Made by a program: the position numbers and the translations under genes. A DNA stretch of 64,000 bases, taken from positions 1 through 64,000 of the forward strand of contig DASYQW010000348.1 of assembly GCA_036005065.1 (NCBI GenBank), read 5' to 3'. Positions within the stretch are counted from its first letter, which is position 1. Each line of letters opens with the position of its first letter. Source of the stretch: Candidatus Methylomirabilota bacterium. GTDB taxonomy: Bacteria; Methylomirabilota; Methylomirabilia; Rokubacteriales; DASRDR01. This document shows positions 29,896-60,728 of the stretch, in pieces. The notes beneath the pieces were generated by a model. That model made no database searches, was not told the origin of the DNA, and worked only from the letters and a program-made list of their open reading frames with translations.

Positions 29896-31371
29896 GTGCG
29901 CACCCCCGGGATGTGGACCCTCGGCGCCGCGCTCGCCGTCGGCCTCGCCACGCTGGTCCAGATCATGCCCATCACCGACACCGATCTCTGGTGGCTCCTC
30001 AAGGCGGGGGAGCACATGGTGGCGACGCGATCGCTGGTGGCCACCGATCCGTTCTCGTGGACGGCCCCCGGCGCCTTCTGGCTCAACCACGCGTGGGGGT
30101 TCGAGCTGCTCCTGTATGGGGTCTATGCGCTGGCGGGATTCTCCGGGCTGATCGCCCTCCAGGCGGGGTTCGCGCTCGCCACGTTCGCGGTCATGTGCTG
30201 GACCCTCCGCCGCGAAGCGGTCCCCTTCGCCTGGGCGTCGATCCTCATCGGGGTCGCCGCGCTGGCGACGCGGGGGTTCTGGTCCCCGCGTCCCCAGGTC
30301 GTCACCTATCTCGGCCTGGCCATCCTGTGGGCGATCGTGTGGGAATACCGGGAGGGCCGCCGCGACTGGCTCGCCTGGCTGCCCCTGCTGATGCTCGTCT
30401 GGGTCAATCTCCACGGCGGGTTCCTCATCGGGCTGGTGGTGCTCGGGCTGGCGACGGTCGGACTGGCGGTGGACCGGTTGTTCGATGCCGGAGACGAGGC
30501 GCTGGCCCGGCCCCGGCTCGGCCGGATGGCCACGGTGTGGCTGGGGTGCCTCGCCGCCACTTTCGTGAATCCCTTCCACGTGCACGCGCTCGTCTTCCCG
30601 TTCCTGGTGGCCGCCGACCATACCGCGAAAGAGATGATCATCGAGTGGTTCTCGCCGGCGTTCCAGTACCCCCAGCTCCGGCTCTTCGAGGGCCTGCTGC
30701 TCTTCTTCCTCGCGGCCCAGCCGGCCGCCCGCCGCCGGCCGCGCCTCGTCGATGTCGGCACGCTCGTCGTGTTCGTCTATCTCACCCTCGACGCCACCCG
30801 GAACATCCCGCTCTTCGTCATCGTGCTCACGCCGCTCGCCGGCCGGCTCGGCCTGGAGGCCTGGACCCGCCTCCTGCCGGCCATCACGGGTCTCGACGCG
30901 GAGCGGCGCCGGCGGGCCTGGGCGGCCGTCGGGCTCGGCCTCCTGGTCCTCCTGGTCGGCGTGCGGGATCTCGGGCGGGTGCCGCTCCGGTCGCTCAGGC
31001 CCGAATGGGGCGTGGCGGACGTCTTTCCCGCCGGGGCGGCGGACTTCCTCCTCGCCCACCGGTTGCCCGGCCGCGTCTACAACGACTACGGGTGGGGCGG
31101 ATACCTGACCTGGCGCCTGTTCCCGCACTATCGGATGTTCATCGACGGCCGCGTCGCCGTGTTCCCCCCGGACATCCGGGAGGACTTCATCACGATCAAC
31201 AACGCGCGGCCGGGATGGCGGGAAGCGCTGGAGCGCCGGGACATCGGGATCATGCTGGTTCGGCGCGGGACCGCGCTGGCCTCGCTCATGCGCGAGGCCC
31301 CGGGCTGGACCGTCGCCTACGAGGATCGGCACATGGTGGTGTTCCAGCGGCCCCCGAGGCACTCCGCGTGA
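29896..31371 (+). CDS. Polytopic membrane protein, GT-C-like, paralogue of the next gene
   Basis: 491 residues with about 10 membrane helices. After helix 1 comes the conserved TDTDLWWLLKAGEHMVATRS, then DPFSWTAPGAFWLNHAWGFE. The next protein has matching blocks (FDFWWYLKSGEYILQTRSIP and DPFSFTAQGRPWINHMWLTQ), so the two are tandem paralogues. The C-terminal soluble segment carries YNDYGWGGYLTWRL and MFIDGRVAVF. GT-C-type glycosyltransferase activity is the best guess from topology, but catalytic residues are not certain. GTG start 2 bases after the preceding stop. Confidence 0.8.
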   Translation: MRTPGMWTLGAALAVGLATLVQIMPITDTDLWWLLKAGEHMVATRSLVATDPFSWTAPGAFWLNHAWGFELLLYGVYALAGFSGLIALQAGFALATFAVMCWTLRREAVPFAWASILIGVAALATRGFWSPRPQVVTYLGLAILWAIVWEYREGRRDWLAWLPLLMLVWVNLHGGFLIGLVVLGLATVGLAVDRLFDAGDEALARPRLGRMATVWLGCLAATFVNPFHVHALVFPFLVAADHTAKEMIIEWFSPAFQYPQLRLFEGLLLFFLAAQPAARRRPRLVDVGTLVVFVYLTLDATRNIPLFVIVLTPLAGRLGLEAWTRLLPAITGLDAERRRRAWAAVGLGLLVLLVGVRDLGRVPLRSLRPEWGVADVFPAGAADFLLAHRLPGRVYNDYGWGGYLTWRLFPHYRMFIDGRVAVFPPDIREDFITINNARPGWREALERRDIGIMLVRRGTALASLMREAPGWTVAYEDRHMVVFQRPPRHSA

Positions 31372-31542
31372 GTCCCCGGGCCGATACCCGTCGCCCCGGG
31401 TCGTCCTCGGTCGTCGGCGGGCCTCAACGTATGCGGCATACGCCTCGGCCCGTCTCCTCCCTGCGTCCTACCGGGGCTCGGGTCTCGCCCCGGGGGCTGC
31501 GATGCGCGACTCGCGGCGCGAACAACAGGCACTCCGCGTGAG
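31357..31542 (+). repeat. Family 2 element: stop-codon-duplicating direct repeats around a long palindrome
   Basis: An exact 16-bp direct repeat AGGCACTCCGCGTGAG (31357-31372 and 31527-31542) contains the TGA of the upstream gene. Between the repeats lies GGCGGGCC-TCAA-CGTATGC-G-GCATACG-CCTC-GGCCCGTC (31416-31454). The core CCTCAACGTATGCGGCATACG recurs at 60597-60617. Confidence 0.8.
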
Positions 31543-31551
31543 CTTCCGGGC

Positions 31552-33426
31552 GTGGCCGTGCTAGCGGGGACGGCGTCGAGCCTGCGCGCGGAACCCGGGC
31601 GTGGCGGGAGGCTCCCGCGCGCGGTCGCCTGGCTCCTCTACGGCCTGACCCTGGGTGTCGTCTTCCTGGTCGCGCTCTCCTCGCTGACGCGCTTCGACTT
31701 CTGGTGGTACCTGAAGTCCGGCGAGTACATCCTCCAGACCCGGAGCATCCCGGGCGGCGACCCCTTCTCGTTCACCGCCCAGGGGCGTCCCTGGATCAAC
31801 CACATGTGGCTGACCCAGGTGATCCTCTACTGGCTCTACGAGAGCGTGGGGCGCATCCCGATCATCATCGGCAAGAGCCTCCTGGTGGCGGCCACCTTCG
31901 GCATCGTGCTGGCGACGTGCCTGCGCCGCGGCGCCCACCCCGTACTCGCGGTGCTGCTGGTCACCCTGGCGGCCCTGGCCGGGAAGGGATACTGGCACGT
32001 CCGGCCTCAGATCATCACCTATCTCCTGATGGCCAGCTATCTCTACCTCTTGCGGGAAGGCTGGGAAGGCCGACTCCGCACGCTGATCTGGCTCCCGCTC
32101 CTCATGGTGGCCTGGGCGAACCTCCACGCGGGGTTCGTCACCGGCCTCGGGCTCCTGGGGGTCATCACGGTCGGAGCGGTGCTCGAGCGGCTCCTCGCCC
32201 CCGAGCGCCCCGACTGGCGCCCGGTGGGCGTCCTGGTGCTCGTCTCCGCCGTCACGGCGGTCGCCACCCTGTTGAACCCGTTCGGGCTCCGGGCGGTCCT
32301 CTTCCCCTTCGAGGTGGTGTCGACCCGGGAGTTCATGCGGACCACGATCGAGTGGTTCTCGCCGAACTTCCACGATCCCCAGTACCGGCCGTTCGAGGCG
32401 ATGATCCTCCTCTCGTTCGCCTCGCTGGGGCTCGGGAGCGCCCGCCTGCGGGTCACCGATGTCCTCCTGGTGCTGACCTTCACCCATCTCGGCGTGTCGT
32501 CCATCCGCCACATCCCGCTGTACGCGGTGGCGGTGACTCCGGCCCTGGCCGACGCTCTCCACGGCGCCGTCGAGCGCGTGTGGTCCTGGCGGGGCGCGTG
32601 GCTGCGCGGTCTCGTCCAGGCCGGGGAGGCGCGGCTCCCCTCGATCTGGCCCCTGTTGCGCGCGCCCCTCGCCCACGCGGCCGCGGCCGGGGTCATACTG
32701 GTGGCCCTGCTCGCCGGGTACGGCGCCCTGGCCCGCGAGCCCTGGACGAGCCCCTTCGTCCAGGACCTGAACGAGTTCGCGTACCCGAAGCGGACCGTGG
32801 AGTTCATGAAGCGCGAGCACGTGCCGGCGCCGCTCTTCAACGTCTACGTGTGGGGGGGATACGAGCTCTGGCGGCTCTATCCCGACTATCAGGTATTCTT
32901 CGACGGCCGCACTCACGTCTACGGCGAACGGATCGTGGAGGACTACCTGGAGGTCGCCTCGCTCAAGCCCGGCTGGAGGGCCGTGCTGGACCGCTGGAAG
33001 ATCCAGTCGGTCCTCACCCATCCGGGCTACGCGCTGAGCGAGGCGCTCTATGCCAGCCCCGAGTGGCGGCTCGTCTTCGTCGATCGGGAGGCGCTCCTGT
33101 TCGTCCGGAACGTCCCGACGCACCAGGCCTTGTTCGATCGGATCGGGCCGGTGGACCGCCCGGCGTCGACGGCGCTGATCCGCCCCGCCCTCGACTCGGC
33201 CTTGCAGGCGGCGGAGCGGGGCGACGACGACGGCGCGATCCGGCGCTTCCGGGACGTCCTTTCCCTGGATCCGGAGAACCCGGTGGCGCTCTACAGCCTC
33301 GGTCTCCTGCTCGACCGTCGGGGAGATCGGCCCGGGGCCGAGCGCCTGTGGCAGGAGCTCCAGCGCTCGTCGGCGGGCACCGAGCTGGCGGCCAAGGCCG
33401 CCCGCGAGCTCGCCCGTCGCCCGTGA
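31552..33426 (+). CDS. Polytopic GT-C-like membrane protein with C-terminal TPR
   Basis: 624 residues, GTG start (31552; another GTG at 31558). Paralogous to the preceding gene through about residue 510: the FWWYLKSGEY block, NHMWLTQ, TIEWFSPNFHDPQYRPFEA and NVYVWGGYELWRLYP. About 10-11 membrane helices. An extra C-terminal segment (about 540-620, DGAIRRFRDVLSLDPENPVA) contains one or two TPR-like repeats not present in the paralogue. Function is likely transfer of lipid-linked sugars; substrate unknown. The gene is separated from its paralogue by the family 2 element. Confidence 0.82.
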   Translation: MAVLAGTASSLRAEPGRGGRLPRAVAWLLYGLTLGVVFLVALSSLTRFDFWWYLKSGEYILQTRSIPGGDPFSFTAQGRPWINHMWLTQVILYWLYESVGRIPIIIGKSLLVAATFGIVLATCLRRGAHPVLAVLLVTLAALAGKGYWHVRPQIITYLLMASYLYLLREGWEGRLRTLIWLPLLMVAWANLHAGFVTGLGLLGVITVGAVLERLLAPERPDWRPVGVLVLVSAVTAVATLLNPFGLRAVLFPFEVVSTREFMRTTIEWFSPNFHDPQYRPFEAMILLSFASLGLGSARLRVTDVLLVLTFTHLGVSSIRHIPLYAVAVTPALADALHGAVERVWSWRGAWLRGLVQAGEARLPSIWPLLRAPLAHAAAAGVILVALLAGYGALAREPWTSPFVQDLNEFAYPKRTVEFMKREHVPAPLFNVYVWGGYELWRLYPDYQVFFDGRTHVYGERIVEDYLEVASLKPGWRAVLDRWKIQSVLTHPGYALSEALYASPEWRLVFVDREALLFVRNVPTHQALFDRIGPVDRPASTALIRPALDSALQAAERGDDDGAIRRFRDVLSLDPENPVALYSLGLLLDRRGDRPGAERLWQELQRSSAGTELAAKAARELARRP

Positions 33427-33447
33427 GCTGACCGGCGCCTGGCGGCC

Positions 33448-34758
33448 ATGCGGCCCAACCGGATCGGACTCTGGCTCTTCCTGGGGAGCCTGCTCCTCTA
33501 CAACGTCAACATGCGCGAGATCAGCTCGGCCGACACGATGGGCACCCGGCTCCTTCCGCTGGCTCTGATTCAGGAGCTTCGCCTCGACCTCGACAGCTTC
33601 TTCCGCGATTACCCGGCCGGGCGCCCGCTGCCGTACTGGGTGCAGCACGTGCGCGGCCACTACCTCTCGAGCTACCCGATCCTTCCGGCCTTGATGGCGG
33701 CGCCCGTGTATCTCGTCCCGCTGAGCCTGTTCACCGGCGGCTCGCTCGCGCTGGTCAATGTCCTGGCCAAGCTGAGCGCGACGGTCTTCGCGGCGCTCTC
33801 GGTCCTCGTCGTCTATCTCGCGCTGCGGCAGCTGGCCCGCCCGCCGGTGGCGGCGGCCATCGCATTCGTGTACGCGGTCGGGACGTCGACCTGGTCGGTC
33901 TCCAGCCAGGGGCTGTGGGGGCACGGCCCGGCCCAGCTCTTCATGGCCGCCGGCCTGTACGGCGTGCTCCGCGCAGAGGCGGATCGGCGCGCCGCGATCT
34001 GGACCGGGATCGCCGCCGGCCTCATGGTGGCGAGCCGGCCGACCACCGGGCTTCCGGCCCTGGCCTTCATGGCGTACCTCGGGCACCGCGACTGGCGGCA
34101 GGGGGCCGTGAGCCTCCTCGGCTTTCTGGCCGTCACGGTGCCCGTGACGGCGCACAACCTCTGGTACTTCGGCTCGGTGCAAGGCGGCTACGCCCAGCTC
34201 CACGCCACCCACGCGCTCTTCCACGGCGTGGGCGGGGCCTGGACGCCGTCGGTCGGTGCCGGCCTGCTCGGAATCCTGGTCAGCCCGAGCCGGGGGCTCC
34301 TCGTCTATTCGCCGGTGCTCGCCTTTGCGCTGGCCGGGCTCATCCTGTCGCTCCGGGACGCGGGCCCGCGGCGGCCGTTCTTCGCGTACATGGCCGCCGC
34401 CACCGGAGGCAGCGTGGTGATGCTCGGCACCTTCGCCGTCTGGTGGGGCGGGCACTCGTTCGGCCCCCGGCTCCTCACCGACGTGCTGCCGCTGCTCGCC
34501 CTCTTCCTGGTGCCGGTGTGGCCGCGGCTCGAGACGTCCCGGCTCCTGACCGCCGCCTTTCTGCTCGCGTTCGTCCTGTCGATCGGCGTCCAGGTCGTCG
34601 GCGTCTTCTATTACCCCTCGCCCCGACGGGTCGACTGGAACTGGACCCCGCAGAACGTGGATTTCGCGCACGAGCGTCTGTGGGACTGGCAGGATACGCA
34701 GATCCTGAGGCTCCTGCGGAATGGCCCCCGCTCGCCGGGGTTCGAATCCGTGGGTTGA
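33448..34758 (+). CDS. Polytopic membrane protein, GT-C-like
   Basis: 436 residues, about 10 membrane helices. The N-terminal loop NVNMREISSADTMGTRLLPL, then PYWVQHVRGHYLSSYPILPAL, looks like the first periplasmic loop of GT-C proteins. A later loop GGHSFGPRLLTDVLPLL resembles the second conserved region of dolichyl-phosphate-mannose-dependent enzymes. The last 50 residues are soluble. It ends the glycosyltransferase cassette; 138 bases follow before the small gene upstream of pilD. Confidence 0.8.
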   Translation: MRPNRIGLWLFLGSLLLYNVNMREISSADTMGTRLLPLALIQELRLDLDSFFRDYPAGRPLPYWVQHVRGHYLSSYPILPALMAAPVYLVPLSLFTGGSLALVNVLAKLSATVFAALSVLVVYLALRQLARPPVAAAIAFVYAVGTSTWSVSSQGLWGHGPAQLFMAAGLYGVLRAEADRRAAIWTGIAAGLMVASRPTTGLPALAFMAYLGHRDWRQGAVSLLGFLAVTVPVTAHNLWYFGSVQGGYAQLHATHALFHGVGGAWTPSVGAGLLGILVSPSRGLLVYSPVLAFALAGLILSLRDAGPRRPFFAYMAAATGGSVVMLGTFAVWWGGHSFGPRLLTDVLPLLALFLVPVWPRLETSRLLTAAFLLAFVLSIGVQVVGVFYYPSPRRVDWNWTPQNVDFAHERLWDWQDTQILRLLRNGPRSPGFESVG

Positions 34759-34844
34759 CTCGAACCGTAGAGGGTGTCGGAAACCGAGCGGCGGGAGGGT
34801 CCACGTGGAGCCGAATTTGTCTCGCGGGCGAGCGCGGCTCGCTC

Positions 34845-34853
34845 TGTTAAAAT
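34845..34853 (+). promoter_or_regulatory. Extended -10 promoter (CTGTTAAAAT region)
   Basis: TG-T-TAAAAT (extended -10 form TGnTATAAT), 43 bases before the start of the small gene upstream of pilD. There is no -35 at normal spacing. A hairpin GCGAGC-GCG-GCTCGC (34829-34843) lies just upstream. Confidence 0.45.
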
Positions 34854-34896
34854 ATCGGGTCACATCCGTGTGTGAGGCGACCGGCAAGGCGGCCGC

Positions 34897-35196
34897 ATGA
34901 GAGATCTGATACAGGCCGTGGTGCTCGAAGGCCAGCAGGTGCGCGTGACCGCCCGTGACCCCCTGCCCATCGAGGCGAAGGCACTGGCCGTGGCGGCCGC
35001 CATTCGCGTGTTCGACCGGTACCCCGTCGTCGATCGGCTCCTCCTGACCGTCGGGGAGGACGAAGTCCGCCTCTCACGGGAGGAGGTCGAGCGGCTCGTC
35101 GGCCCGGAGGGGTTTGCCCGGCTCAAGGACCGGGAGGGGGCTCGCGAAGTCCTCACGCGCGCCATCCAGGCCTATGCCGCGGAGGGGACGCCGTGA
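34897..35196 (+). CDS. Small hypothetical protein co-translated with pilD
   Basis: 99 residues, cytoplasmic, alpha/beta composition: MRDLIQAVVLEGQQVRVTAR, then AAIRVFDRYPVVDRLLLTVG and EVRLSREEVERLVG, with a helical end. I do not recognise a family. The last codons overlap the GTG of pilD (GTGA), so translation is coupled, which makes a T4P accessory role worth considering. It is probably transcribed from the extended -10 promoter just upstream. Confidence 0.75.
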   Translation: MRDLIQAVVLEGQQVRVTARDPLPIEAKALAVAAAIRVFDRYPVVDRLLLTVGEDEVRLSREEVERLVGPEGFARLKDREGAREVLTRAIQAYAAEGTP

Positions 35197-35981
35197 CCGT
35201 GGCGCTTCCGGGCGGGCTTCCCCCCCTGTTCGCCTGGTCCGTGGTGGTCGCGCTGGCGGCGGTGCTGGGCAGCTTCCTGAACGTCTGCATCTCCCGCCTT
35301 CCCCGTGGCGAGAGCATCGTGTCGCCTCCGTCCCACTGCCCGCGCTGCCAGACGCCCATCCGGTACTACGACAACATCCCGCTCGTCTCCTTCGCGCTCC
35401 TCGGGGGTCGCTGCCGGGCGTGCCGGGAGCCGATCCCGTGGCGGTACCCGGTGGTGGAGGCGTTGGCGATCGGGATCGGGCTCCTGGCGCTGTGGCACTT
35501 CGGACCCACCTGGGCGGGCCTCCGCGTGTTCGTCCTGGGCCTCGCCCTGGTCGCAGTGACGTTCATCGACCTCGAGACGCGTCTCATTCCCGACCTGATC
35601 ACGCTGCCGGGCATCGTGGTCGGGCTCCTCTTCCACCTCGCCTGGGGGCCCTGGCGCGTCGTGGACGGACTCCTGGGGTGCGTCGTCGCGGGCGGGCTCT
35701 TCTATCTGATCGCCTGGCTGAGCGAGCTGAGTTTCGGTCGGGAAGGGATGGGCGGCGGTGACATCAAGCTGGCGGCGATGATGGGCGCGTTCCTGGGGCT
35801 CGGGGGCGTGCTCGTCGCGATCTTCCTCGGGGTCATGGCCGGAGGGATCATGGCCCTGGGGCTCCTGGGCTTCGGTCTCAAGCGCTTCGGGCAATACCTG
35901 GCCTTCGGACCGTTTCTCGCGGTGGGCGGCCTCATCGCCGCGTTCTGGGCCGGGCCCATCCTCGACTGGTACCTGGGGTAG
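35193..35981 (+). CDS. pilD: Prepilin peptidase / N-methyltransferase PilD
   Basis: 262 residues. An N-terminal methylase-type region begins FLNVCISRLPRGESIV and has two CxxC pairs (CPRC and CRAC) that hold zinc. The aspartyl peptidase part has the two catalytic Asp motifs FIDLETRLIPD and GMGGGDIK. Eight membrane helices are predictable. It cuts the short basic leader of the pilins and methylates the new N-terminus. The GTG start overlaps the stop of the upstream small gene. Confidence 0.95.
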   Translation: MTVALPGGLPPLFAWSVVVALAAVLGSFLNVCISRLPRGESIVSPPSHCPRCQTPIRYYDNIPLVSFALLGGRCRACREPIPWRYPVVEALAIGIGLLALWHFGPTWAGLRVFVLGLALVAVTFIDLETRLIPDLITLPGIVVGLLFHLAWGPWRVVDGLLGCVVAGGLFYLIAWLSELSFGREGMGGGDIKLAAMMGAFLGLGGVLVAIFLGVMAGGIMALGLLGFGLKRFGQYLAFGPFLAVGGLIAAFWAGPILDWYLG

Positions 35982-35987
35982 CCGACC

Positions 35988-36956
35988 ATGGCAGACCCCT
36001 CGGCGGCCGTCCAGAACCCGGGGCCGGCGTCGGCCCCCCGCTCGGCCGCAAGCGACACCCGGCGGGCGCTTTTGCTCGCCGTGGGTCTCTGCGTGGCGTT
36101 GCTGCTGGCCGTGGTGAGCTACCTGGTGCTGCCCTATCCGGCGCTGATCGCGGCCGTCTTCCTCCTGGGCGCCCTGCTCCTCGGCGCGCTATACCGCTCG
36201 TTTTCCCTGGCCCGGCCGCCCGAGCCCGCGGGTCCTCTCTCGCAGCCGGCAGCGGCGACCGCCAGCCCGGGCGACGTCGGCCCGGAGCTCGAGGCCATGA
36301 TCGCGGCGGCCCGCACGGACGAGGTCGATACGTTGATGCGGGAGTTCACCCGCATCCTCGGCGTCCTCCAGCAGCAGGCCTCGCAGGTCCAGGACTATGC
36401 GGGGCGCTTCGAGGCCATGAACGAGGAGCTCCGGAACGCGAACCTCCGGCTGCGCGAGCTCTCGCTGACCGACGAGCTGACCGAGGTGGGAAACCGGCGG
36501 AACTTCGACGTGCGCATGCGGGAAGAGATCAACCGGTCGACCCGGTTCGGCCACGCCTTCAGCCTCCTGCTCCTCGACATCGACCTCTTCAAGAAGTTCA
36601 ACGACGAGTACGGGCATCCCCAGGGCAACGTGGTGCTGCGCGGGCTGGGGTCGCTCATGCGGTCGATGTCGCGGGAGGGCGATGTGCCGTGCCGGATCGG
36701 CGGCGAGGAGTTCGCGTTCATCCTGCCCGAGACGGTCAAGCCCGACGCGACGCTGTTCGCCGAGCGCATGCGCCGCGGCGTCGAGGCCACCATCAAGACG
36801 CCGGAGGGCGAGCACTCGGTGACGGTGAGCATCGGGCTGGCGGCCTTCCCCGAGGACGGCAAGTCCCCCGAGGACCTCGAGCGGGCGGCCGACGAGGCGC
36901 TCTACGAATCCAAGCACGCGGGGCGAAACCGGGTCACCGCGTATCACCGTAAGTGA
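35988..36956 (+). CDS. Membrane diguanylate cyclase (GGDEF domain)
   Basis: 322 residues. Two hydrophobic helices (about 25-70), a coiled-coil-like linker (about 100-155, RFEAMNEELRNANLRLREL), then a GGDEF domain beginning LTDELTEVGNRRNFD. The active loop is RIGGEEF (about 236-242). Five residues before it lies REGD, an RxxD inhibitory site, so the enzyme should make c-di-GMP with product inhibition. It lies 6 bases downstream of pilD and upstream of the minor pilins, linking c-di-GMP to pilus control. Confidence 0.93.
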   Translation: MADPSAAVQNPGPASAPRSAASDTRRALLLAVGLCVALLLAVVSYLVLPYPALIAAVFLLGALLLGALYRSFSLARPPEPAGPLSQPAAATASPGDVGPELEAMIAAARTDEVDTLMREFTRILGVLQQQASQVQDYAGRFEAMNEELRNANLRLRELSLTDELTEVGNRRNFDVRMREEINRSTRFGHAFSLLLLDIDLFKKFNDEYGHPQGNVVLRGLGSLMRSMSREGDVPCRIGGEEFAFILPETVKPDATLFAERMRRGVEATIKTPEGEHSVTVSIGLAAFPEDGKSPEDLERAADEALYESKHAGRNRVTAYHRK

Positions 36957-36968
36957 CCATGCCTAAAG

Positions 36969-37020
36969 GCTAAAAATTAGCATATATAAGTTGACAATCG
37001 ACGGGCATGTGAGCGATTCT
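36969..37020 (+). promoter_or_regulatory. AT-rich promoter region of the minor pilin operon
   Basis: A short AT-rich island in GC-rich DNA. It has a palindrome GCTAA-AAA-TTAGC (36969-36981), TATATAAG (36983-36990) and TTGACA (36991-36996). TTGACA with an 18-base spacer to GATTCT gives only a weak -10; TATATA could be a -10 of its own. The exact start is undecided. Confidence 0.45.
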
Positions 37021-37065
37021 GATTGGTCGCCTGAGAACCCGGTCGGTCGGGAGAGGGAGCGGTCG

Positions 37066-37557
37066 ATGAAGAAGAGATGGAGCGAGGCGGGAATGACCCT
37101 CGTCGAGCTTGCCGTCATCCTGGTGATCCTGTCGATCCTGGCGGTCGCGCTGTATCCCAGCCTGGGGAACGTGCTCAAGGTCACGGCGTCCAAGGGCGCG
37201 GCCGAAGAGGTCGCCGGGGCGGTCCGCCTGGCCCGGCAGTATGCGATCACGCGGGGCTCGAACCACTGCATCGCGTTCTCGGGGTCGCCGAACACCACGT
37301 TCACGATCAAGACGGCCTCCACCGACAGCGCGTGCGACGGGGGTGCGATCCAGCCCGCGCAGGCGATCGGTCACGGCCTGGCGGTCGTCTCGCCCACCAA
37401 CCTGTCGATCATCTTCAACGGGGTGGGCAACGTGAGGAACTTCGCCCCCGGGAACCCGACCGTGACCCTGACCGTCGACACGACCCCGTCGACCTGCGCG
37501 AACAACGTCCTGGTCACGCTGTACGGTGGTGTTCGCGTGAGCCAGGGCACCTGCTGA
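37066..37557 (+). CDS. fimT: Minor pilin FimT/GspH family
   Basis: 163 residues. Prepilin leader MKKRWSEAG, cut before MTLVELAVILVILSILAVAL (Glu +5 present). The body shows the GspH pattern AAEEVAGAVRLARQYAITRG and a beta-rich end with Cys residues (STCANNVLVTLYGGVRV). It should help start pilus assembly. ATG at 37066 with GAGAGGGAGC upstream. An upstream in-frame start at 36991 would put about 25 residues before the leader and is rejected. Confidence 0.88.
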   Translation: MKKRWSEAGMTLVELAVILVILSILAVALYPSLGNVLKVTASKGAAEEVAGAVRLARQYAITRGSNHCIAFSGSPNTTFTIKTASTDSACDGGAIQPAQAIGHGLAVVSPTNLSIIFNGVGNVRNFAPGNPTVTLTVDTTPSTCANNVLVTLYGGVRVSQGTC

Positions 37558-37567
37558 GGAGGGCGCC

Positions 37568-37972
37568 ATGACACGGAACGAGCGGGGCGTCACCCTCCTC
37601 GAGCTTCTGGTCGCGATGATGCTGCTCATGGTCGCCCTCCTGGGCCTGGCCGCGTCCTTCCCCCTGGCGATGTTCGGCGTCACGACGGGAGGCTACCAGA
37701 CGACGGCGACCCTCCTGGCCCAGGCGGCGGTCGAGCAGGCCAAGGCCACCCCCTACGCCGGGCTCAATGGGATGGCGGGCGTGAGCACGGGCGCCCCGCC
37801 GTGCTCGAGCGGCGACTACTACGTGGTCACCGGCTACTCGGGCTTCAAGCGGTGCATCAAGGTGCAGGTCGGGGCCCCCACGGCCACCAGCACCACGGTG
37901 ACCGTCGTGGTGCGCTTCACCGGGGGCCAGGGGCTCAACGACACCACCCTGGCCACCATCTTCGCGCAGTAA
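37568..37972 (+). CDS. pilV: Minor pilin PilV/GspI family
   Basis: 134 residues. Leader MTRNERG, mature N-terminus VTLLELLVAMMLLMVALLGL (Glu +5), then ASFPLAMFGVTTGGYQTTAT, which is typical of PilV. Lies 10 bases after fimT with a GGAGGGCGCC ribosome-binding site. Part of the priming complex with fimT, pilW and pilX. Confidence 0.87.
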   Translation: MTRNERGVTLLELLVAMMLLMVALLGLAASFPLAMFGVTTGGYQTTATLLAQAAVEQAKATPYAGLNGMAGVSTGAPPCSSGDYYVVTGYSGFKRCIKVQVGAPTATSTTVTVVVRFTGGQGLNDTTLATIFAQ

Positions 37973-37983
37973 AGGGGGGGACC

Positions 37984-51693: not shown

Positions 51694-51699
51694 TTCAAC

Positions 51700-52965: not shown

Positions 52966-52971
52966 GGCGGT

Positions 52972-53000: not shown

Positions 53001-53036
53001 AACAAATGGCGGCCGGCCCGCAAATTCCCGCCAGCA

Positions 53037-53066
53037 TTGACAGCCTCGCGACCGGGCCCGTATAGT
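53037..53066 (+). promoter_or_regulatory. Sigma70 promoter for the TPR-efp-acc unit
   Basis: TTGACA (53037-53042), 18-base spacer, TATAGT (53061-53066). Transcription would start near 53073, 33 bases before the GTG of the TPR gene. Confidence 0.75.
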
Positions 53067-53105
53067 AAGCGAGATCCGGCGGCTCTGACCTGGCCGGGAG
53101 CGCAC

Positions 53106-53738
53106 GTGCCGACCGCCGACGAGATCCGCCACCAGGAAGCGCGCCTCCGCCGGGAGCCCAGCTCCCAGGCGTATGCCGCGCTCGCGGAGGCGTACCGGCG
53201 GGCCGGCCGGGTCGATGAAGCGATCGCGGTCTCCCGCCAGGGTCTCGAGCGGCACCCGGCGTACTCGACCGCCCGCTTCATCCTGGCCAAGGCGCTGCTG
53301 GACCGCGAGGAGGTGGCCGAGGCGCGGGCCGAGGCCGAGCGCTTCCTCAAGAGCGAGCCGGACCACGAGCCGGCCCTTCGACTGGCGGCGGAATGCGCGT
53401 TGCGGCTGGCGGACCCGGCGGGGACGCTGGCCCATCTTCGCCGCCTCGCCGTGCTCGACCCCGACGACCGCGCGCTCCAGGGGCAGCTCCGAGCCCTGGA
53501 GGTGGCGCTGGGTCGGGTGCGCCCGGGTCAGGAGGCCGGCGGCCTCTGGCCGCTCCTCGCGGACGATACGTTCGCCACGGTGACGTTCGGCGATCTGTGT
53601 CTCGGCCAGGGTCTCCTGGACGAGGCCACGGCCGTCTTCAGTCGCATCGTGCTCCGGGCTCCCGGTCACGCGATTGCCCGCGAGCGCCTGGCCGAGCTCG
53701 GTCGGCCGAGAGGTCAGGCGCGGCGGCTCAGGGGATAG
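53106..53738 (+). CDS. TPR-repeat protein
   Basis: 210 residues, cytoplasmic (no signal peptide), with about four TPR-type helical pairs: SSQAYAALAEAYRRAGRVDE, SRQGLERHPAYSTARFILAK, EPDHEPALRLAAECALRLAD and DLCLGQGLLDEATAVFSRIV. A scaffold role is expected. GTG 53106 with GGGAG upstream is used because the promoter ends at 53066; an upstream in-frame start at 53037 lies inside the promoter. Lies 12 bases before efp. Confidence 0.82.
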   Translation: MPTADEIRHQEARLRREPSSQAYAALAEAYRRAGRVDEAIAVSRQGLERHPAYSTARFILAKALLDREEVAEARAEAERFLKSEPDHEPALRLAAECALRLADPAGTLAHLRRLAVLDPDDRALQGQLRALEVALGRVRPGQEAGGLWPLLADDTFATVTFGDLCLGQGLLDEATAVFSRIVLRAPGHAIARERLAELGRPRGQARRLRG

Positions 53739-53750
53739 AGGCGTCAGGGA

Positions 53751-54311
53751 ATGCAGGTATCGACGGCAGAGTTCCGCAGGGGTCTCAAGATCGAGCTCGA
53801 CGGCAACCCGTACACCATCGTCGACTTTCAGCACGTCAAGCCGGGCAAGGGGGGGGCCTTCGTTCGCACCAAGCTCAAGCACCTCCGGCTCGGCACCGTC
53901 GTGGACCGGACGTTCCGCTCAGGTGAGAAGTTCGAGCTGGTGGACTTCGAGCAGAAGCCGATGCAGTTCCTCTACCGGGACGACGGCTTCCACTTCATGA
54001 GCCTGGAGACGTACGAGCAGGTGTCTCTCTCCGAGGAGGAGGTCGGGGAAGCCGCCGACTACCTCAAGGAAAACATGGAAGTGGAGCTACTCTACATCAA
54101 CGGATCCCCGGCCGGCGTGGACCTCCCGACCTTCGCCGAGCTTCGGGTCACGAAGACCGACCCCGGCCTGCGCGGAGACACCGCCTCGGGAGGCTCGAAG
54201 CCCGCCACCCTCGAGACGGGCGCGGTCGTGTCGGTCCCCCTCTTCATCAACGAGGGGGACATCCTCAAGGTCGATACGCGGACGGGCGCCTACATCGAGC
54301 GGGCAGGATAG
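53751..54311 (+). CDS. efp: Translation elongation factor P
   Basis: 186 residues, three beta domains. KOW-like start, then VKPGKGGAFVRTKLK with the modifiable Lys at about 33 and a Pro before it; later EVGEAADYLKENMEVELLYI and the C-terminal FINEGDILKVDTRTGAYIER. It rescues ribosomes stalled at polyproline; the many Pro-rich proteins encoded nearby (PilP, PilQ, lipoproteins) would need it. No modification enzyme is seen in this window. Confidence 0.96.
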   Translation: MQVSTAEFRRGLKIELDGNPYTIVDFQHVKPGKGGAFVRTKLKHLRLGTVVDRTFRSGEKFELVDFEQKPMQFLYRDDGFHFMSLETYEQVSLSEEEVGEAADYLKENMEVELLYINGSPAGVDLPTFAELRVTKTDPGLRGDTASGGSKPATLETGAVVSVPLFINEGDILKVDTRTGAYIERAG

Positions 54312-54374
54312 CGCGGTGCCGCCCACCGGGGTGGTCCGGCTCGAGTCGCCGCCCGGCGCCGAGGGGAATCACCG

Positions 54375-54821
<447 letters not shown>

Positions 54822-54848
54822 GTCCACCCATGCTGAGCCGGAGTTGAC

Positions 54849-56183
54849 GTGTTCGGCAAGATCCTGATCGCCAACCGGGGCGAGATCGCGCTCCGCATCC
54901 TCCGGACCTGCCGGGAGATGGGGATCCGCACGGTGGTCGCCCACTCGAAGGCCGATGCCAACTCCCTGCCCGTCCTCCTCGCCGACGAGAGCGTGTGCAT
55001 CGGGCCCGAGGACAGCGCCCAGAGTTACCTGAACATCCCGAGCCTCATCTCGGCCGCCGAGGTGACCGACGCCGAGGCGATCCACCCCGGCTACGGCTTC
55101 CTGGCCGAGAATGCCACGTTCGCCGAGATCTGCCGGGCCTGCTCGATCCGCTTCATCGGACCGAGCCCGGACGCGATCCGGCTGCTCGGGGACAAGGTCC
55201 GCGCCCGCGACCTGGCGCGGAAGGCCGAGGTGCCGCTGCTCCCGGGCAGCGAGGGAGCCCTCCGCGACGAGACCGAGGCTCGCGCGTGGGCGGACGAGAT
55301 CGGGTACCCGATCGTGCTCAAGGCGGCCATGGGCGGCGGCGGGCGCGGGATGCGGGTCGTCCGCGGTCCGGAGAGCCTGACGGCCGCGGTCCAGACGTGT
55401 CAGACGGAGGCGGCCGCCGCCTTCGGATCGTCCGAGATCTACATCGAGCGGTACGTCGAGAGCGCCCGGCACGTCGAGGTGCAGGTCCTGGCCGACGGCA
55501 GCGGGGACCTGATCCACCTCGGGGAGCGCGAATGCTCCATCCAGCGGCGCCACCAGAAGCTCCTCGAGGAGACCCCGTCGCCGGCGGTGACCGCGGCCCT
55601 TCGCCGGGAGCTGACCGCCGCCGCCCTGCGACTCTGCCGGGCCGCCGGCTACGAGAGCGCGGGGACCGTGGAGTTCATCCTCGACGGGAAGGGCCGCTTC
55701 TACTTCCTCGAGGTGAACACGCGGATCCAGGTGGAGCATCCGGTCACCGAGATGGTGACCGGCATCGATCTCGTCCGCGAGCAGATCCGGATCGCGGCCG
55801 GCGAGCCGCTGGGCCTGACGCAGGACGCCGTGCCTTCCGAGGGCCACGCGATCGAGTGCCGCATCACCGCGGAAGACCCGGTGACCTTCGTCCCCAATCC
55901 CGGCCGCATCACCACCTACCTGCCGCCCGGGGGCTTCGGGGTGCGGGTGGACAGCCACTGCTTCGGCGGCTACACGGTGCCGCCCCACTACGACTCGCTG
56001 GTGGCCAAGGTCATCACCCACGGGGCGGATCGCCCGGCGGCGATCGCCCGAATGCGGCGCGCGCTGGCCGAGTTCCTCCTCGAAGGGATCAAGACCACGA
56101 TCCCGTTCCACACGCGCCTGCTCACCGATCCCCGGTTCGTCGAAGGGGCGTACTCGACGGCGTTCATCGAGACCCAGCTCTGA
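54849..56183 (+). CDS. accC: Biotin carboxylase subunit of acetyl-CoA carboxylase
   Basis: 444 residues. ATP-grasp: KILIANRGEIALRILRTCRE at the start, the glycine-rich loop KAAMGGGGRGMRVV, HVEVQVLADGSG, ERECSIQRRHQKLLEE and FLEVNTRIQVEHPVTEM with metal and bicarbonate-binding residues. Transfers carboxyl from bicarbonate to biotin of AccB. GTG start at 54849. Confidence 0.97.
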   Translation: MFGKILIANRGEIALRILRTCREMGIRTVVAHSKADANSLPVLLADESVCIGPEDSAQSYLNIPSLISAAEVTDAEAIHPGYGFLAENATFAEICRACSIRFIGPSPDAIRLLGDKVRARDLARKAEVPLLPGSEGALRDETEARAWADEIGYPIVLKAAMGGGGRGMRVVRGPESLTAAVQTCQTEAAAAFGSSEIYIERYVESARHVEVQVLADGSGDLIHLGERECSIQRRHQKLLEETPSPAVTAALRRELTAAALRLCRAAGYESAGTVEFILDGKGRFYFLEVNTRIQVEHPVTEMVTGIDLVREQIRIAAGEPLGLTQDAVPSEGHAIECRITAEDPVTFVPNPGRITTYLPPGGFGVRVDSHCFGGYTVPPHYDSLVAKVITHGADRPAAIARMRRALAEFLLEGIKTTIPFHTRLLTDPRFVEGAYSTAFIETQL

Positions 56184-56195
56184 TACCCTCCGGGC

Positions 56196-56876
56196 ATGGC
56201 TGCGCCCCCGACGTCCCGGCCGCCCCTCGACCTCTACGTGATCCTGGATCCGGCGGCCTCGGGAGACGCCGACCTCGCCACCCTCGCCGACCAGGTCCTG
56301 GCGGCCGGCGGGCGCTGGATCCAGCTCCGGGCCAAAGAGGCGACGACGCGCGAGCTCGCCGGGCTGGCCCGGCGCGTCGGCGAGCGGGTGCGGGCGGCCG
56401 GCGGCGTGTTCCTCGTGAACGATCGGTTGGACGTCGCGCTGGCCATCGGAGCGGACGGCGTCCATCTGGGCCAGGACGACCTGGCGGTGCAGGACGCCCG
56501 GCGTCTGGCTCCGGGCCTGGTCGTGGGCGCCTCCACGCACAGCCTGGATCAAGCCCGCCGCGCTCAAGCCGAGGGCGCCGACTACGTCGCCCTGGGCTCG
56601 ATCTTCCCGACCGGATCCAAGCCGAGCTTCCAGCTGGTCGGGCTCGAGATGCTCCGGCTCTGCCGTCCCCACGTCACGGTGCCGCTGGTCGCCATCGGGG
56701 GCATCACCCCGGAGCGCGTGCCGGCGGTGCTCGCCGCCGGCGCCGACGGGGTGGCGGTCATCTCCGCGATCGGCATGGCGCCCGACCCGGGCGGGGCCAC
56801 CCGGGCGTTTCTGGCGGCCTTCCGCCAGGCCCGACCGGCTCGTCACCTTGACAGCTCTTGGCGCGGCGCCCCATAA
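56196..56876 (+). CDS. thiE: Thiamine-phosphate synthase
   Basis: 226 residues, TIM barrel. Family motifs: LAAGGRWIQLRAKEATTREL, FLVNDRLDVALAIGADGVHL, GQDDL and VGASTHSLDQARRAQAEGAD, with GSIFPTGSKP and VAIGGI. Joins HMP-PP and thiazole phosphate to thiamine phosphate. 12 bases after accC. No TPP riboswitch was seen in front of the transcription unit. The promoter of the next transporter operon overlaps its 3' end. Confidence 0.92.
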   Translation: MAAPPTSRPPLDLYVILDPAASGDADLATLADQVLAAGGRWIQLRAKEATTRELAGLARRVGERVRAAGGVFLVNDRLDVALAIGADGVHLGQDDLAVQDARRLAPGLVVGASTHSLDQARRAQAEGADYVALGSIFPTGSKPSFQLVGLEMLRLCRPHVTVPLVAIGGITPERVPAVLAAGADGVAVISAIGMAPDPGGATRAFLAAFRQARPARHLDSSWRGAP

Positions 56877-56877
56877 T
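56848..56877 (+). promoter_or_regulatory. Sigma70 promoter of the liv operon
   Basis: TTGACA (56848-56853), 18-base spacer, CATAAT (56872-56877), inside the end of thiE. The leader of about 109 bases carries a GGCCC-GAAA-GGGTC hairpin. The same GTCACCTTGACA string precedes the second substrate-binding gene at 63623-63634. Confidence 0.75.
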
Positions 56878-56992
56878 ACTCACCACTCGCGTCCATGCCG
56901 CCATGCTCTCGCCCTGGGAGGTGAGGGTGTCGCCGGCCCGAAAGGGTCGACTTGGTTCCCGGGTTCACTCACGCCAGAAAAGGAGGATGCCT

Positions 56993-58177
56993 ATGCGCTT
57001 CCGCCTGACCCGCCTCGTGATTCTCCTCGCGGTGCTCGCGCTCGCGGTTCCGCTGACCGCGGAGGCTCAGGGCAAGGGGACGATCAAGATCGCCACCCAG
57101 AGCCCGCTGTCCGGCGAGCTGGCGGCGCTGGGTGAGGGCATCAAGCTCGGCACCCAGCTGGCCGTCGAGAAGTTCAAGGCCGCCGTCGAGAAGGCCGGCT
57201 TCAAGGTCGAGCTGGTGCCCTTCGACGATCAGGCCAAGCCCGACGTGGGTGTCGCCAACGCGAAGAACATCATCAACGACAAGGACATCCTGGCGGTCAT
57301 CGGCCACCTCAACTCGGGAGTCGCCATCCCGTCGTCGGAGGTCTACAAGGAAGTCAACCTCGTGATGATCTCGCCCGCCAACACGAACCCGCTCATCACC
57401 GACCGCGGCCTGCCCAACGTGAACCGGGTCTGCGGCCGCGACGACGTGCAGGGAGAGGTGGGGGCGCGGTTCGCCAAGGACGAGCTGAAGGTCAAGAGCG
57501 TGTACATCGTCCACAACAAGAACCAGTACGGGCAGGGGATCGCCGAGTATTTCCAGGACACCTCGAAGAAGCTCGGTGTCCAGGTCCTCGGCTTCGAGGG
57601 CACGGAAGAGCGCGCCAACTTCGACCCGATCCTGACCCCGATCAAGGCCAAGAACCCGGACGTGATCTATTTCGGAGGGGAGTACCCGCAGGCCGCGCCG
57701 ATGTTCCGCCAGGCCCGGGAAAAGGGCATCAAGGCCAAGTTCATGGGGCCGGACGGGCTGGACTCGTCGGAGCTTGTGAAGCTCGGCGGTGACGCGGTGG
57801 CGGGGATGCACTTCACCACGGTCGCGGGAGGCGTGAAGGAATACCCCAAGGCCAAGGAGTTCGCCGACGAGTACAAGAAGAAGTTCGGGAAGGACCCGGA
57901 GCCGTTCGCGGCCCAGGCCTATGACGCCACCGCCGTCGCCCTGAAGGGCCTGGAGGCCGCCATCAAGGAGGCCGGAGGGAAGGTGCCGACCCGCGAGGCC
58001 GTGTCGAAGGCCACGCGGAAGGTCAAGTACAGCGGCATCACCGGCAGCATCGAGTTCGACGACAAGGGAGATCCGAAGAAGGCCACCTACCTGATCTACC
58101 AGGTCGGCAAGGACTGGAAGGACAACAAGCTGGTCAAGCGCCTGGAGATCGCCGCCCCCGCGGCCAAGAAGCAGTAG
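56993..58177 (+). CDS. livK: Branched-chain amino-acid ABC transporter, substrate-binding protein
   Basis: 394 residues. Signal peptide about 1-23 (VPLTAEAQ), then the Liv-type periplasmic binding fold: TIKIATQSPLSGELAALGEG, AVIGHLNSGVAIPSSEVYKE, SPANTNPLITDRGLPNVNRV and SVYIVHNKNQYGQGIAEYFQ. ATG 56993 with AAAGGAGG 6 bases upstream. It delivers a Leu/Ile/Val-type or other polar solute to LivH/LivM; true ligand unknown, since such systems are widely diversified. Confidence 0.93.
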   Translation: MRFRLTRLVILLAVLALAVPLTAEAQGKGTIKIATQSPLSGELAALGEGIKLGTQLAVEKFKAAVEKAGFKVELVPFDDQAKPDVGVANAKNIINDKDILAVIGHLNSGVAIPSSEVYKEVNLVMISPANTNPLITDRGLPNVNRVCGRDDVQGEVGARFAKDELKVKSVYIVHNKNQYGQGIAEYFQDTSKKLGVQVLGFEGTEERANFDPILTPIKAKNPDVIYFGGEYPQAAPMFRQAREKGIKAKFMGPDGLDSSELVKLGGDAVAGMHFTTVAGGVKEYPKAKEFADEYKKKFGKDPEPFAAQAYDATAVALKGLEAAIKEAGGKVPTREAVSKATRKVKYSGITGSIEFDDKGDPKKATYLIYQVGKDWKDNKLVKRLEIAAPAAKKQ

Positions 58178-58198
58178 CCGGACGCGCCTGGAACGCCG

Positions 58199-58229
58199 CC
58201 GGGGAGGGGCCGGCTCGGCCTCTCCCCGG
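58199..58229 (+). other. Hairpin between livK and livH
   Basis: CCGGGGAG / CTCCCCGG with a GGCC inner stem (58199-58229), followed by TTT. It probably protects the abundant livK message or lowers readthrough into the permease genes. Confidence 0.6.
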
Positions 58230-58261
58230 TTTCGGGGGGGACGTAGTCCCCTGCGAGGCGT

Positions 58262-59233
58262 ATGGACTGGCCGCTCGTCCTCGGCATCCTGCCCCAGGTC
58301 GTCATGGACGGCCTGGTCCTCGGCTTCATGTACGCCCTGATCGCCCTCGGCTACACCATGGTCTACGGGGTCCTCGAGCTGATCAACTTCGCCCACAGCG
58401 AGATCTTCATGGTGGGCGCCTTCGTCGGCGTGGAGATCCTGCTCGTGCTCCGGGCCGGCGGCTTGCTCGATCCCCTCAACCCCTTCCTGGTCCTGCTTCT
58501 GATCGTGCTGACGGGAATGCTGGTCTCCGGGCTCCTGGCGGTGGCGATCGAGCGCGTGGCCTACCGCCCGCTTCGGAGCGCGCCGCGCCTCATCCCGCTC
58601 ATCTCCGCGATCGGGGTGTCGTTCTTTCTCCAGGACGCGGTGCGGCTGGTCGAGAGCCTGTGGCGGAACGCCTTTTACCTCACCTATCCGTCCTTCCCGG
58701 TCTTCAACAAGCGCATCGAGCTCGGCGAGACCGTGGACTTCTCGGTCAAGTCGCTCCTCGTCATCGCCGCGTCGCTGATGGTGCTGGTCGCGCTCCAGTT
58801 CCTGGTCAACCGCACCAGGCTCGGCAAGGCGATCCGGGCCGTCGCCGAGGATCAGCCGACCGCGAGCCTCATGGGCATCAACGTGAACCGGATCATCTCG
58901 GTGACCTTCCTGATCGGGGGGGCCATGGGTGGGGCGGCCGGGGTGCTCTTCGGGGTCCAATACAACACCGTCAACCCGTTCACCGGCTTCATCCCCGGCA
59001 TCAAGGCCTTCACCGCCGCGGTCCTGGGCGGCATCGGCAACATTCCGGGAGCGATGGTGGGGGGCCTCGTGCTGGGGCTGCTCGAGGCCTTCGCCGCGTC
59101 CTACCTTTCGTTGTTCACCGGCGGCGCGTTCGGCGCGGAGTACAAGGACATCTTCGCGTTCTCGATCCTGATTCTGATCCTGATCTTCCGGCCCCGAGGA
59201 TTGCTGGGCGAGGTGGTCCGTGAGCGGGCGTAG
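58262..59233 (+). CDS. livH: Branched-chain amino-acid ABC permease LivH
   Basis: 323 residues, about 8 membrane helices. YALIALGYTMVYGVLELINF matches the LivH start, and GGIGNIPGAMVGGLVLGLLE the conserved EAA-like loop region facing the ATPase; FLVNRTRLGKAIRAVAEDQP precedes it. Forms the pore with LivM. ATG 58262. Confidence 0.93.
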   Translation: MDWPLVLGILPQVVMDGLVLGFMYALIALGYTMVYGVLELINFAHSEIFMVGAFVGVEILLVLRAGGLLDPLNPFLVLLLIVLTGMLVSGLLAVAIERVAYRPLRSAPRLIPLISAIGVSFFLQDAVRLVESLWRNAFYLTYPSFPVFNKRIELGETVDFSVKSLLVIAASLMVLVALQFLVNRTRLGKAIRAVAEDQPTASLMGINVNRIISVTFLIGGAMGGAAGVLFGVQYNTVNPFTGFIPGIKAFTAAVLGGIGNIPGAMVGGLVLGLLEAFAASYLSLFTGGAFGAEYKDIFAFSILILILIFRPRGLLGEVVRERA

Positions 59234-59251
59234 GCCGGCCAGGACGGGGGG

Positions 59252-60544
59252 ATGAGCTTCACGTTTCGGCTGCGGCGCAGCGCCCTGGCCGTCAACGTGC
59301 TGGTGCTCGCCCTCATCGCCGGGTCGGCGTTCCTGGTCTACGCCGTCCCCCGCTCGATCCTGGCCTTCATGGCCTTCCAGGCCTCGCTCCTCGTCGTCTA
59401 CTACGCGCCGCTCGCCCACCGGGTCAAGATGGGCTACGCCGTGCTCGCGCTCGGCGTGCTCATGCCCGTGCTCGGCACCATCAACGGCTACTACATGGAG
59501 ATCGCCATCCAGGTCGGCATCTTCGTGGCGCTGGCCCTCGGGCTCAACATCGTGGTGGGCCTGGCCGGACTGCTCGATCTCGGCTACGTGGCCTTCTATG
59601 CCGTCGGGGCGTACCTGTGGGCCATCTTCGGCTCGCCCCAGGCCGGGAAGTTCATCAGCGCCGCCCTGGTGAGCTTCCCGCTCGCCCCCGGCTGGTTCTT
59701 CGTGTTCCTGATCCTGGGGGTGGCGGTGGCCGGGGTGACCGGCGTGCTCCTGGGCCTCCCGGTGCTCCGGCTGCGCGGCGACTATCTGGCCATCGTGACC
59801 CTGGGGTTCGGCGAGGTCATCCGGGTCCTGGCCAACAACCTCGACAAGCCCTGGAACATCACCAACGGGCCGAAGGGCATCACGCCGATCCAGCGGCCCC
59901 CCCTCTTCTTCGACCCTCTGCTGCGGGTGGCCGGGATCGAGGTGTCTCCCTTCACGCTCTACCCGCTGTATTTCTACTTCCTCGTCCTGGCGGTGGTCGT
60001 GGTCGTCATCCTGGTGAACCAGCGGCTCGAGCACTCCCACGTCGGACGGGCGTGGGAGGCGATCCGGGAGGACGAGGTGGCGGCCCAGGCGATGGGAGTG
60101 CCGCTCGTCCGCATGAAGCTCCTCGCCTTCGCGGCGGGGGCCTCGTTCGCGGGGATCATGGGCGTCATCTTCAGCGCCAAGCAGCTCTTCATCAACCCCG
60201 AGTCCTTCACCTTTCTCGAGTCGATCGGGGTGCTGGCCATGGTCATCCTGGGCGGGATGGGCTCGATCCCGGGGGCGATCATCGGAGCCAGCGTGGTCAC
60301 CATCCTGAACCTCCAGGTCCTCAAGGGCATCTCGCTCTGGCTGAACGAGCTGCGGAACTCCGGGCTGGAGTTCCTGGGCTTCAACCTGGCCAACCTGCCG
60401 TCGCAGTTCGAGCCGGCCAAGTACGAGCGCATGGTCTTCGGGATCATCCTCGTGCTCATGATGATCTATCGCCCGGAAGGGATCATTCCCGCCCGGCGGC
60501 GGCGGCTGGAGACGTATCACCGGGGCGAGGAGCCCCCGCCGTGA
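59252..60544 (+). CDS. livM: Branched-chain amino-acid ABC permease LivM
   Basis: 430 residues, about 10 helices. GLNIVVGLAGLLDLGYVAFY is the LivM signature; GFGEVIRVLANNLDKPWNIT and the ATPase-contact GRAWEAIREDEVAAQAMGVP follow, then GGMGSIPGAIIGASVVTILN. The C-terminal extension of about 40 residues is basic. The stop codon lies inside a family 2 repeat unit. Confidence 0.93.
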   Translation: MSFTFRLRRSALAVNVLVLALIAGSAFLVYAVPRSILAFMAFQASLLVVYYAPLAHRVKMGYAVLALGVLMPVLGTINGYYMEIAIQVGIFVALALGLNIVVGLAGLLDLGYVAFYAVGAYLWAIFGSPQAGKFISAALVSFPLAPGWFFVFLILGVAVAGVTGVLLGLPVLRLRGDYLAIVTLGFGEVIRVLANNLDKPWNITNGPKGITPIQRPPLFFDPLLRVAGIEVSPFTLYPLYFYFLVLAVVVVVILVNQRLEHSHVGRAWEAIREDEVAAQAMGVPLVRMKLLAFAAGASFAGIMGVIFSAKQLFINPESFTFLESIGVLAMVILGGMGSIPGAIIGASVVTILNLQVLKGISLWLNELRNSGLEFLGFNLANLPSQFEPAKYERMVFGIILVLMMIYRPEGIIPARRRRLETYHRGEEPPP

Positions 60545-60728
60545 GGCGGCCCGGGCCGGGGCCCGTCGCATCTCTGCGTCCTCGGCGCTCGGCGCGCCTC
60601 AACGTATGCGGCATACGTCTCGGCGCGCCTCGCGCCTGCGTCCTTGATCTGCTCGGGCCGCGGCCCGGTTCCATCGCCCGGAGCCGACCACGCCGCTGCT
60701 CCGAAGGTAACGCCGTGAGGCGGCCCGG
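60537..60728 (+). repeat. Family 2 element: stop-codon-duplicating direct repeats around a long palindrome
   Basis: Exact 18-bp direct repeat CGCCGTGAGGCGGCCCGG (60537-60554 and 60711-60728), spanning the livM TGA. The centre is GGCGCGCC-TCAA-CGTATGC-G-GCATACG-TCTC-GGCGCGCC (60591-60629). Outer arms differ from the other copy but still pair. Confidence 0.8.

What the first reader, a model, noticed from the sequence alone, without database searches (positions are those of the whole stretch)
31357..60728. Second element type that duplicates a gene's stop codon and inserts a long covarying palindrome
At 31357-31542 and 60537-60728 an exact 16- or 18-bp direct repeat that spans the upstream stop codon flanks about 155 bp of DNA. 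Both have the same centre CCTCAACGTATGCGGCATACG, embedded in larger arms that differ but pair (GGCGGGCC/GGCCCGTC and GGCGCGCC/GGCGCGCC). The repeat period is almost the same (170 and 174 bp). The direct repeats have different sequences at the two sites, as expected for target duplications. No transposase is present. It resembles a non-autonomous mobile element or structured RNA aimed at gene ends inside operons.
Basis: seen in the sequence. Interest (0 to 1): 0.72.

Follow-up and report, generated by a model that had tools for sequence, protein, structure and literature searches.

The report
Mobile palindromes wedged into overlapping genes
This genome carries about 60 copies of a small hairpin-shaped DNA element that sits right at gene ends; many have split pairs of overlapping genes, duplicating the shared stop/start signal and carrying a short open frame and ribosome-binding motif, so that both neighbours can probably still be made.

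Summary
The core has 53 copies in the genome (reversed control 0); a covariance model finds about 60. Of 37 stem pairs, 21 show double compensatory change. The direct repeats are genuine: 13 of 51 copies score 13 or more, 0 of 2,550 mismatched flank pairs do. In 47 of 58 copies a sense stop codon lies just upstream (control 3.8%).

Decisive test: the purN-purH junction, occupied here, is a bare stop/start overlap in 25 relatives of the order. The element was inserted and duplicated that overlap.

New: most junction copies are bridged. The start codon overlapping gene 1's stop opens a frame through the element that ends on gene 2's start (18 of 28 exact; three frames used, so no conserved peptide). 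A 3' tail found only in this genome puts GAAGG seven nt before gene 2's start. Hairpin-less copies keep the tail and mostly the phase.

G.U pairs are no commoner than A.C mismatches, so nothing requires an RNA function. No Y1 transposase was found. Best reading: a non-autonomous palindromic element tolerated inside translationally coupled operons; its mobiliser is unknown, and translation of the bridge is inferred.

The parts
31357..31372 (+). direct repeat, copy 1 (AGGCACTCCGCGTGAG); contains the TGA stop of gene 29737-31371 inside GTGA
31375..31495 (+). imperfect palindrome (hairpin), core at 31425-31442
   Evidence: covariance model R1, 125.8 bits; fold z -4.3
31496..31526 (+). tail between hairpin and second repeat; not the standard ribosome-binding tail
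31527..31542 (+). direct repeat, copy 2
31368..31541 (+). bridging open frame, 57 codons, from the GTG overlapping gene 1's stop to the TGA in repeat copy 2; next gene probably starts at 31552
60537..60554 (+). direct repeat, copy 1; contains GTGA at 60541-60544, with the stop of the LivM-type permease gene 59252-60544
60550..60670 (+). imperfect palindrome (hairpin), core at 60600-60617
   Evidence: covariance model R1, 117.2 bits; fold z -6.7
60662..60707 (+). 3' tail ending in GAAGG, seven nt before GTGA at 60715
   Evidence: model R3; alignment A4
60711..60728 (+). direct repeat, copy 2; GTGA at 60715-60718, continuing into a second unit
60715..60773 (+). second, hairpin-less unit (59 nt between GTGA copies); tail 60722-60766 ends in GAAGG, seven nt before the start of the LivG-type ATPase gene at 60774
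60541..60777 (+). bridging open frame, 78 codons, from the GTG overlapping the LivM-type stop to the TGA overlapping the LivG-type start

Best explanation
It is a non-autonomous palindromic mobile element that lives at gene ends and, in this lineage, inside translationally coupled gene pairs. Shown: about 60 dispersed copies; flanking genes mostly unrelated to each other; target repeats; a bare overlap at the same junction in relatives. Shown: at overlapping junctions the insertion duplicates the stop/start overlap (NTGA), so gene 1 keeps its stop and gene 2 its start; the overlapping start usually opens a frame through the element that ends on gene 2's start; a tail found only in this genome places GAAGG seven nt before that start. 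Inferred: ribosomes ending gene 1 restart, read through the palindrome and hand over to gene 2, which avoids polarity and makes the insertion nearly harmless. Inferred: insertions elsewhere are lost by selection. Inferred: the stem is kept by a DNA-level process (hairpin-templated correction, or recognition of single-stranded DNA by an enzyme acting in trans), and the GGCCCGG repeats flanking the palindrome let it be deleted, leaving hairpin-less units. The mobilising enzyme is not known.
For: Copies: 53 core matches, reversed control 0; about 60 by covariance model. Covariation: 21 of 37 pairs with double changes, 93.7% of cells paired vs 82.1% shuffled and at most 45% when slid. Target repeats. 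Gene ends: 47 of 58 vs 3.8% control. Unrelated flanks: 38 of 46 upstream and 36 of 46 downstream genes have no homologue in the set, the rest share 25-46% identity. Empty site: purN-purH has the element in G000 and a bare NTGA or TGATG overlap in 25 relatives. Bridge: 18 of 28 evaluable copies end exactly on gene 2's start; spacing is 2 mod 3 in 19 of 28 (p 0.0002) and in 11 of 19 distinct spacings (p 0.024). The frame used differs between copies (frames 0, 1, 2), so openness rather than a peptide is kept. Tail: all 8 evaluable hairpin-less units put gene 2's start exactly 52 nt from the tail start; the tail model has no match in 58 order relatives. DNA level: G.U 11, A.C 12.
Against: Some junction copies are not bridged (L018, L024, L011), and about 17 copies sit after a stop without any overlapping start (type A), so bridging is not a property of the whole family. 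Copies are related by descent, so the phase test is not fully independent (p 0.024 on distinct spacings). Open frames are easy in DNA this rich in G+C: other frames are also often open. Repeat length varies (about 11 to 38 bp), which no common transposase class gives. No RNA or protein data exist; translation of the bridge is not shown. No relative of the same genus or family was available, so the empty-site test rests on order-level relatives and on one junction outside the window.
Confidence: 0.7

Rival explanations
1. The hairpin is a functional RNA, such as an mRNA 3'-end stabiliser, RNase III site or attenuator, retained at gene ends for regulation, and its mobility is secondary.
For: Copies are predominantly in sense orientation directly after a stop codon, fold very stably, and cousins occupy the rpsJ-rplC junction in several genera.
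Against: G.U pairs are no commoner than A.C mismatches (11 vs 12); cousins at rpsJ-rplC are inverted in G029, G022 and G017 and absent in others; no Rfam match; hairpin-less units keep the tail and mostly the phase.
Confidence: 0.15
2. The bridge is a real small-protein gene family inserted between operon genes.
For: Open frames of about 57 codons with start and stop overlapping both neighbours and a ribosome-binding motif.
Against: Copies use three different frames of the same DNA, so the peptides differ completely; no Pfam match for the 57-residue frame; strong nucleic-acid covariation; hairpin-less units lack most of the frame yet mostly keep phase.
Confidence: 0.05
3. The repeats arose by local tandem duplication at gene junctions rather than by transposition.
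For: Tandem units occur (L249, L241/L243, L057), and in several copies the second repeat runs on into element sequence (L001, L034, L036, L040).
Against: The same internal sequence is found between dozens of mostly unrelated gene pairs with different direct repeats, and purN-purH is empty in 25 relatives.
Confidence: 0.08

Closest known systems
Rickettsia palindromic elements (RPE), reviewed in PMC10969869
   Same: Short palindromic repeats, dispersed, kept as open frame and translated with host genes.
   Different: RPEs lie inside one gene as an in-frame fusion. Here the element lies between two overlapping genes, duplicates their stop/start overlap, makes a separate bridging frame and often carries a ribosome-binding tail; direct repeats are seen.
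REP elements (GTAG and CGTC superfamilies, PMC3733652)
   Same: Palindromic, close to the 3' end of the upstream gene; GTAG REPs often supply a TAG stop, as the order cousins seem to do.
   Different: REPs are 20-40 bp with an unpaired terminal tag and, for GTAG, RAYT partners. This hairpin is about 120 bp with internal loops and target repeats, has no such terminal tag, and no Y1 transposase is found in the genome.
QMITE2 of Coxiella burnetii (PMC5896051)
   Same: 150-190 bp, contains a palindrome, copy-specific direct repeats, mainly in 3' untranslated regions, one in-frame extension at a gene's 3' end.
   Different: Direct repeats 7-11 nt, terminal inverted repeats, a GTAG REP inside; no stop/start bridge is mentioned in the passages read.
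Chunjie MITE of Geobacter uraniireducens (cited in PMC10969869; original paper not held)
   Same: Non-autonomous element whose paper title reports insertion into an operon without disturbing its structure.
   Different: 178-235 bp with conserved terminal inverted repeats; details of the junction could not be checked here.

Membership tests
MITE | short, dispersed, non-autonomous, no transposase gene | tested here: met
   about 120-170 bp, about 60 copies
MITE | target-site duplication of fixed length | tested here: not met
   repeats are real but vary from about 11 to 38 bp
MITE | terminal inverted repeats shared with an autonomous element | tested here: inconclusive
   palindromic arms are present and many cousins end in CTAGCAGG...CCTGCTAG; no autonomous partner was searched for beyond Y1 transposases and reverse transcriptases
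REP/RAYT | Y1 (HUH) transposase in the genome, flanked by the repeats | tested here: not met
   no PF01797 match in G000 while control genomes ring (the genome is 97.9% complete); 16 Y1 loci in order relatives carry no cousin hairpin
REP (GTAG/CGTC) | 20-40 bp palindrome with unpaired terminal GTAG or CGTC tag | tested here: not met
   hairpin about 120 bp; CGTC occurs only inside it; definition from PMC3733652
Rickettsia palindromic elements | insertion inside a protein-coding gene as in-frame fusion | tested here: not met
   copies lie between genes; only a few (L013, L117, L248) are in phase with gene 2
known RNA family | match to an Rfam model at its gathering score | tested here: not met
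   none in window; only one sub-threshold hit, away from the hairpins, in eight related loci

The most novel reading that the evidence does not exclude
A transposable unit specialised for translational coupling: it recognises, or survives mainly at, NTGA stop/start overlaps, duplicates the overlap, and brings its own mini-cistron and ribosome-binding site at a fixed seven-nt distance, so that operons are split without losing coupled translation.
Probability: 0.4. Interest if true: 0.78.

Novelty: new variant of a known kind. Interest (0 to 1): 0.66.

Why it matters
Bacterial operons are thought to resist insertions because of polarity. An element whose duplicated target restores both the stop and the start, and whose length keeps a frame open from one to the other, shows a way for mobile DNA to live inside tightly coupled operons. 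It also suggests how new small frames and new ribosome-binding sites can enter operons, and gives dozens of natural junctions on which coupling can be tested directly.

Tried and rejected
RNA family searches (no match). RAYT-driven REP (no Y1 transposase in the genome; none flanked by cousins in relatives). A conserved small protein (three frames used). Spread by operon duplication (flanking genes mostly unrelated). The one reverse transcriptase found is a group II intron maturase on another contig with no copy of the hairpin in the 3.6 kb held around it: a possible but untested partner. The genome-contig scan for the 18-bp core gave two hits in unrelated organisms, no more than chance would give in a collection of 257 billion bases. 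Papers: no description found of insertion at NTGA overlaps; most subscription papers are not held.

Full report
What was checked. Both sites are as described: exact 16- and 18-bp direct repeats, periods 170 and 174, the same centre, differing but pairing arms. The centre occurs 53 times in the genome of origin (28 forward, 25 reverse; reversed control 0), and a covariance model of the hairpin matches 60 places (one of these is the same palindrome read on the other strand, and only 150 candidates were scored, so the true number may be higher).

Structure. In 39 full copies, 21 of 37 pairs show changes on both sides, 93.7% of cells pair (82.1% when shuffled, at most 45% when slid), covariation score 0.268 against 0.071. 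Changes are mostly exchanges of Watson-Crick pairs. G.T/T.G cells number 11 and A.C/C.A cells 12. An RNA stem would tolerate the first and not the second, so the pairing looks kept at the DNA level. This is an inference from one alignment.

Placement. A coding-scored sense stop codon lies 35-75 nt upstream of the core in 47 of 58 copies, against 3.8% of control positions in the window, most often at 52-63 nt, that is within about 10 nt of the foot of the hairpin. A few copies (L019, L025, L044) face a gene on the other strand and seem inverted.

Two classes. Type A copies follow a TAG, TGA or TAA stop and have no conserved tail. Type B copies sit at overlaps written ATGA, GTGA or TGATG. After the hairpin they often have a 45-nt tail, consensus GGCCCGGTNCCATCGCCGGACCCGATCACGCTGCTGNTCCGAAGG, then seven nt, then the start codon of the next gene. 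A sequence-only model of the tail gives 40 matches in this genome at E 0.1, 25 of them at E 1e-5, and none in 58 order relatives at E 1e-5. About a dozen of these lack the hairpin. Several keep varying amounts of the hairpin's first bases (L252, L254, L255, L256), and the hairpin is flanked by GGCCCGG on both sides, so they look like deletion derivatives. That direction is inferred.

Direct repeats. Own flanks give 13 of 51 scores of at least 13; 2,550 mismatched flank pairs give none. Lengths run mostly from about 11 to 18 bp, with about 24 (L113) and 38 (L007) as outliers lying in the 5' coding part of the next gene.

Empty sites. No same-genus or same-family genome was available. At the purN-purH junction of contig C197 (L047/L273) this genome has the element between two GTGA copies. 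Of the 29 relatives whose junction was fetched, 25 have purN and purH joined by a bare NTGA or TGATG overlap, one has a short gap (L293), and three are not informative. So the ancestral state was very probably a coupled overlap, and the element was inserted there. In cousins of the order, the rpsJ-rplC junction is empty (9-29 bp) in G032, G058, G004, G045, G041, G047 and G049 and filled by various palindromes in others, inverted in G029, G022 and G017; G050 lacks the element that its congener G012 carries.

The bridge. In type B copies the start codon overlapping gene 1's stop opens a frame that passes through the element. In 18 of 28 evaluable copies this frame ends exactly on the stop overlapping gene 2's start. 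NTGA-to-NTGA spacing is 2 mod 3 in 19 of 28 (p 0.0002), and in 11 of 19 distinct spacings (p 0.024). The frame used is 0, 1 or 2 depending on the copy, and the two window copies give unrelated peptides. What is kept is an open, in-phase path, not a peptide. At 31357 the bridge ends at 31541 and the next gene probably starts at 31552; at 60537 it ends on the LivG-type start (genes).

Order-wide family. Cousin hairpins occur in 37 of 60 order genomes, up to 50 scored per genome. In 43 of 56 examined copies a gene ends at one or both edges, typically at TAG in CTAG-CAGG...CCTG-CTAG. That a palindrome's end supplies TAG to its neighbours is described for GTAG REPs (PMC3733652).

How it likely works. 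Shown: dispersal, insertion, duplication of the overlap, phase, tail spacing. Inferred: translation of the bridge, protection from polarity, DNA-level stem maintenance. Unknown: the enzyme. No Y1 transposase is found, and order relatives' Y1 genes are not flanked by cousin hairpins. The only reverse transcriptase found is a group II intron maturase elsewhere. Variable repeat length fits neither a usual DDE transposase nor a Y1 enzyme (established knowledge of those families). Whether the seven-nt spacing reflects the insertion mechanism or selection for ribosome binding cannot be decided here.

Verdict. The family is a new variant of known palindromic repeats; its fit to coupled gene junctions is undescribed in the literature that could be searched here.

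Noticed in passing
L009, L013, L018, L029, L038, L041, L113: A second palindrome (around GGACGGCGGGGCCCCAGCCCCGCGACGTCC, flanked by GGCGCGCC-like arms) is nested inside the hairpin's 3' arm, or near its apex in L113, in seven copies.
   Followed up: partly
L007 (copy 1501) and L113 (copy 1806): Copies with 38- and about 24-bp direct repeats lie in the 5' coding part of the next gene; new sequence before the second repeat supplies a ribosome-binding motif and start codon.
   Followed up: partly
L057 1449-1861: Three cousin hairpins in tandem at 145-146 bp spacing in G015.
   Followed up: no
L197-L226 (rpsJ-rplC junction): The ribosomal-protein junction rpsJ-rplC is filled by different palindromes, in both orientations, in many genera of the order and is empty in others: a hot spot.
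   Followed up: partly
L049 (copy 7606), L074, L151, L162: Gene ends of similar sequence (apparently branched-chain amino acid permease genes) carry the hairpin in four genomes of two families; shared ancestry or repeated insertion is undecided.
   Followed up: no
L111, L112: Variants with a different apical loop (CGTACAAAGGCGTACG) show that the core search misses some copies.
   Followed up: no
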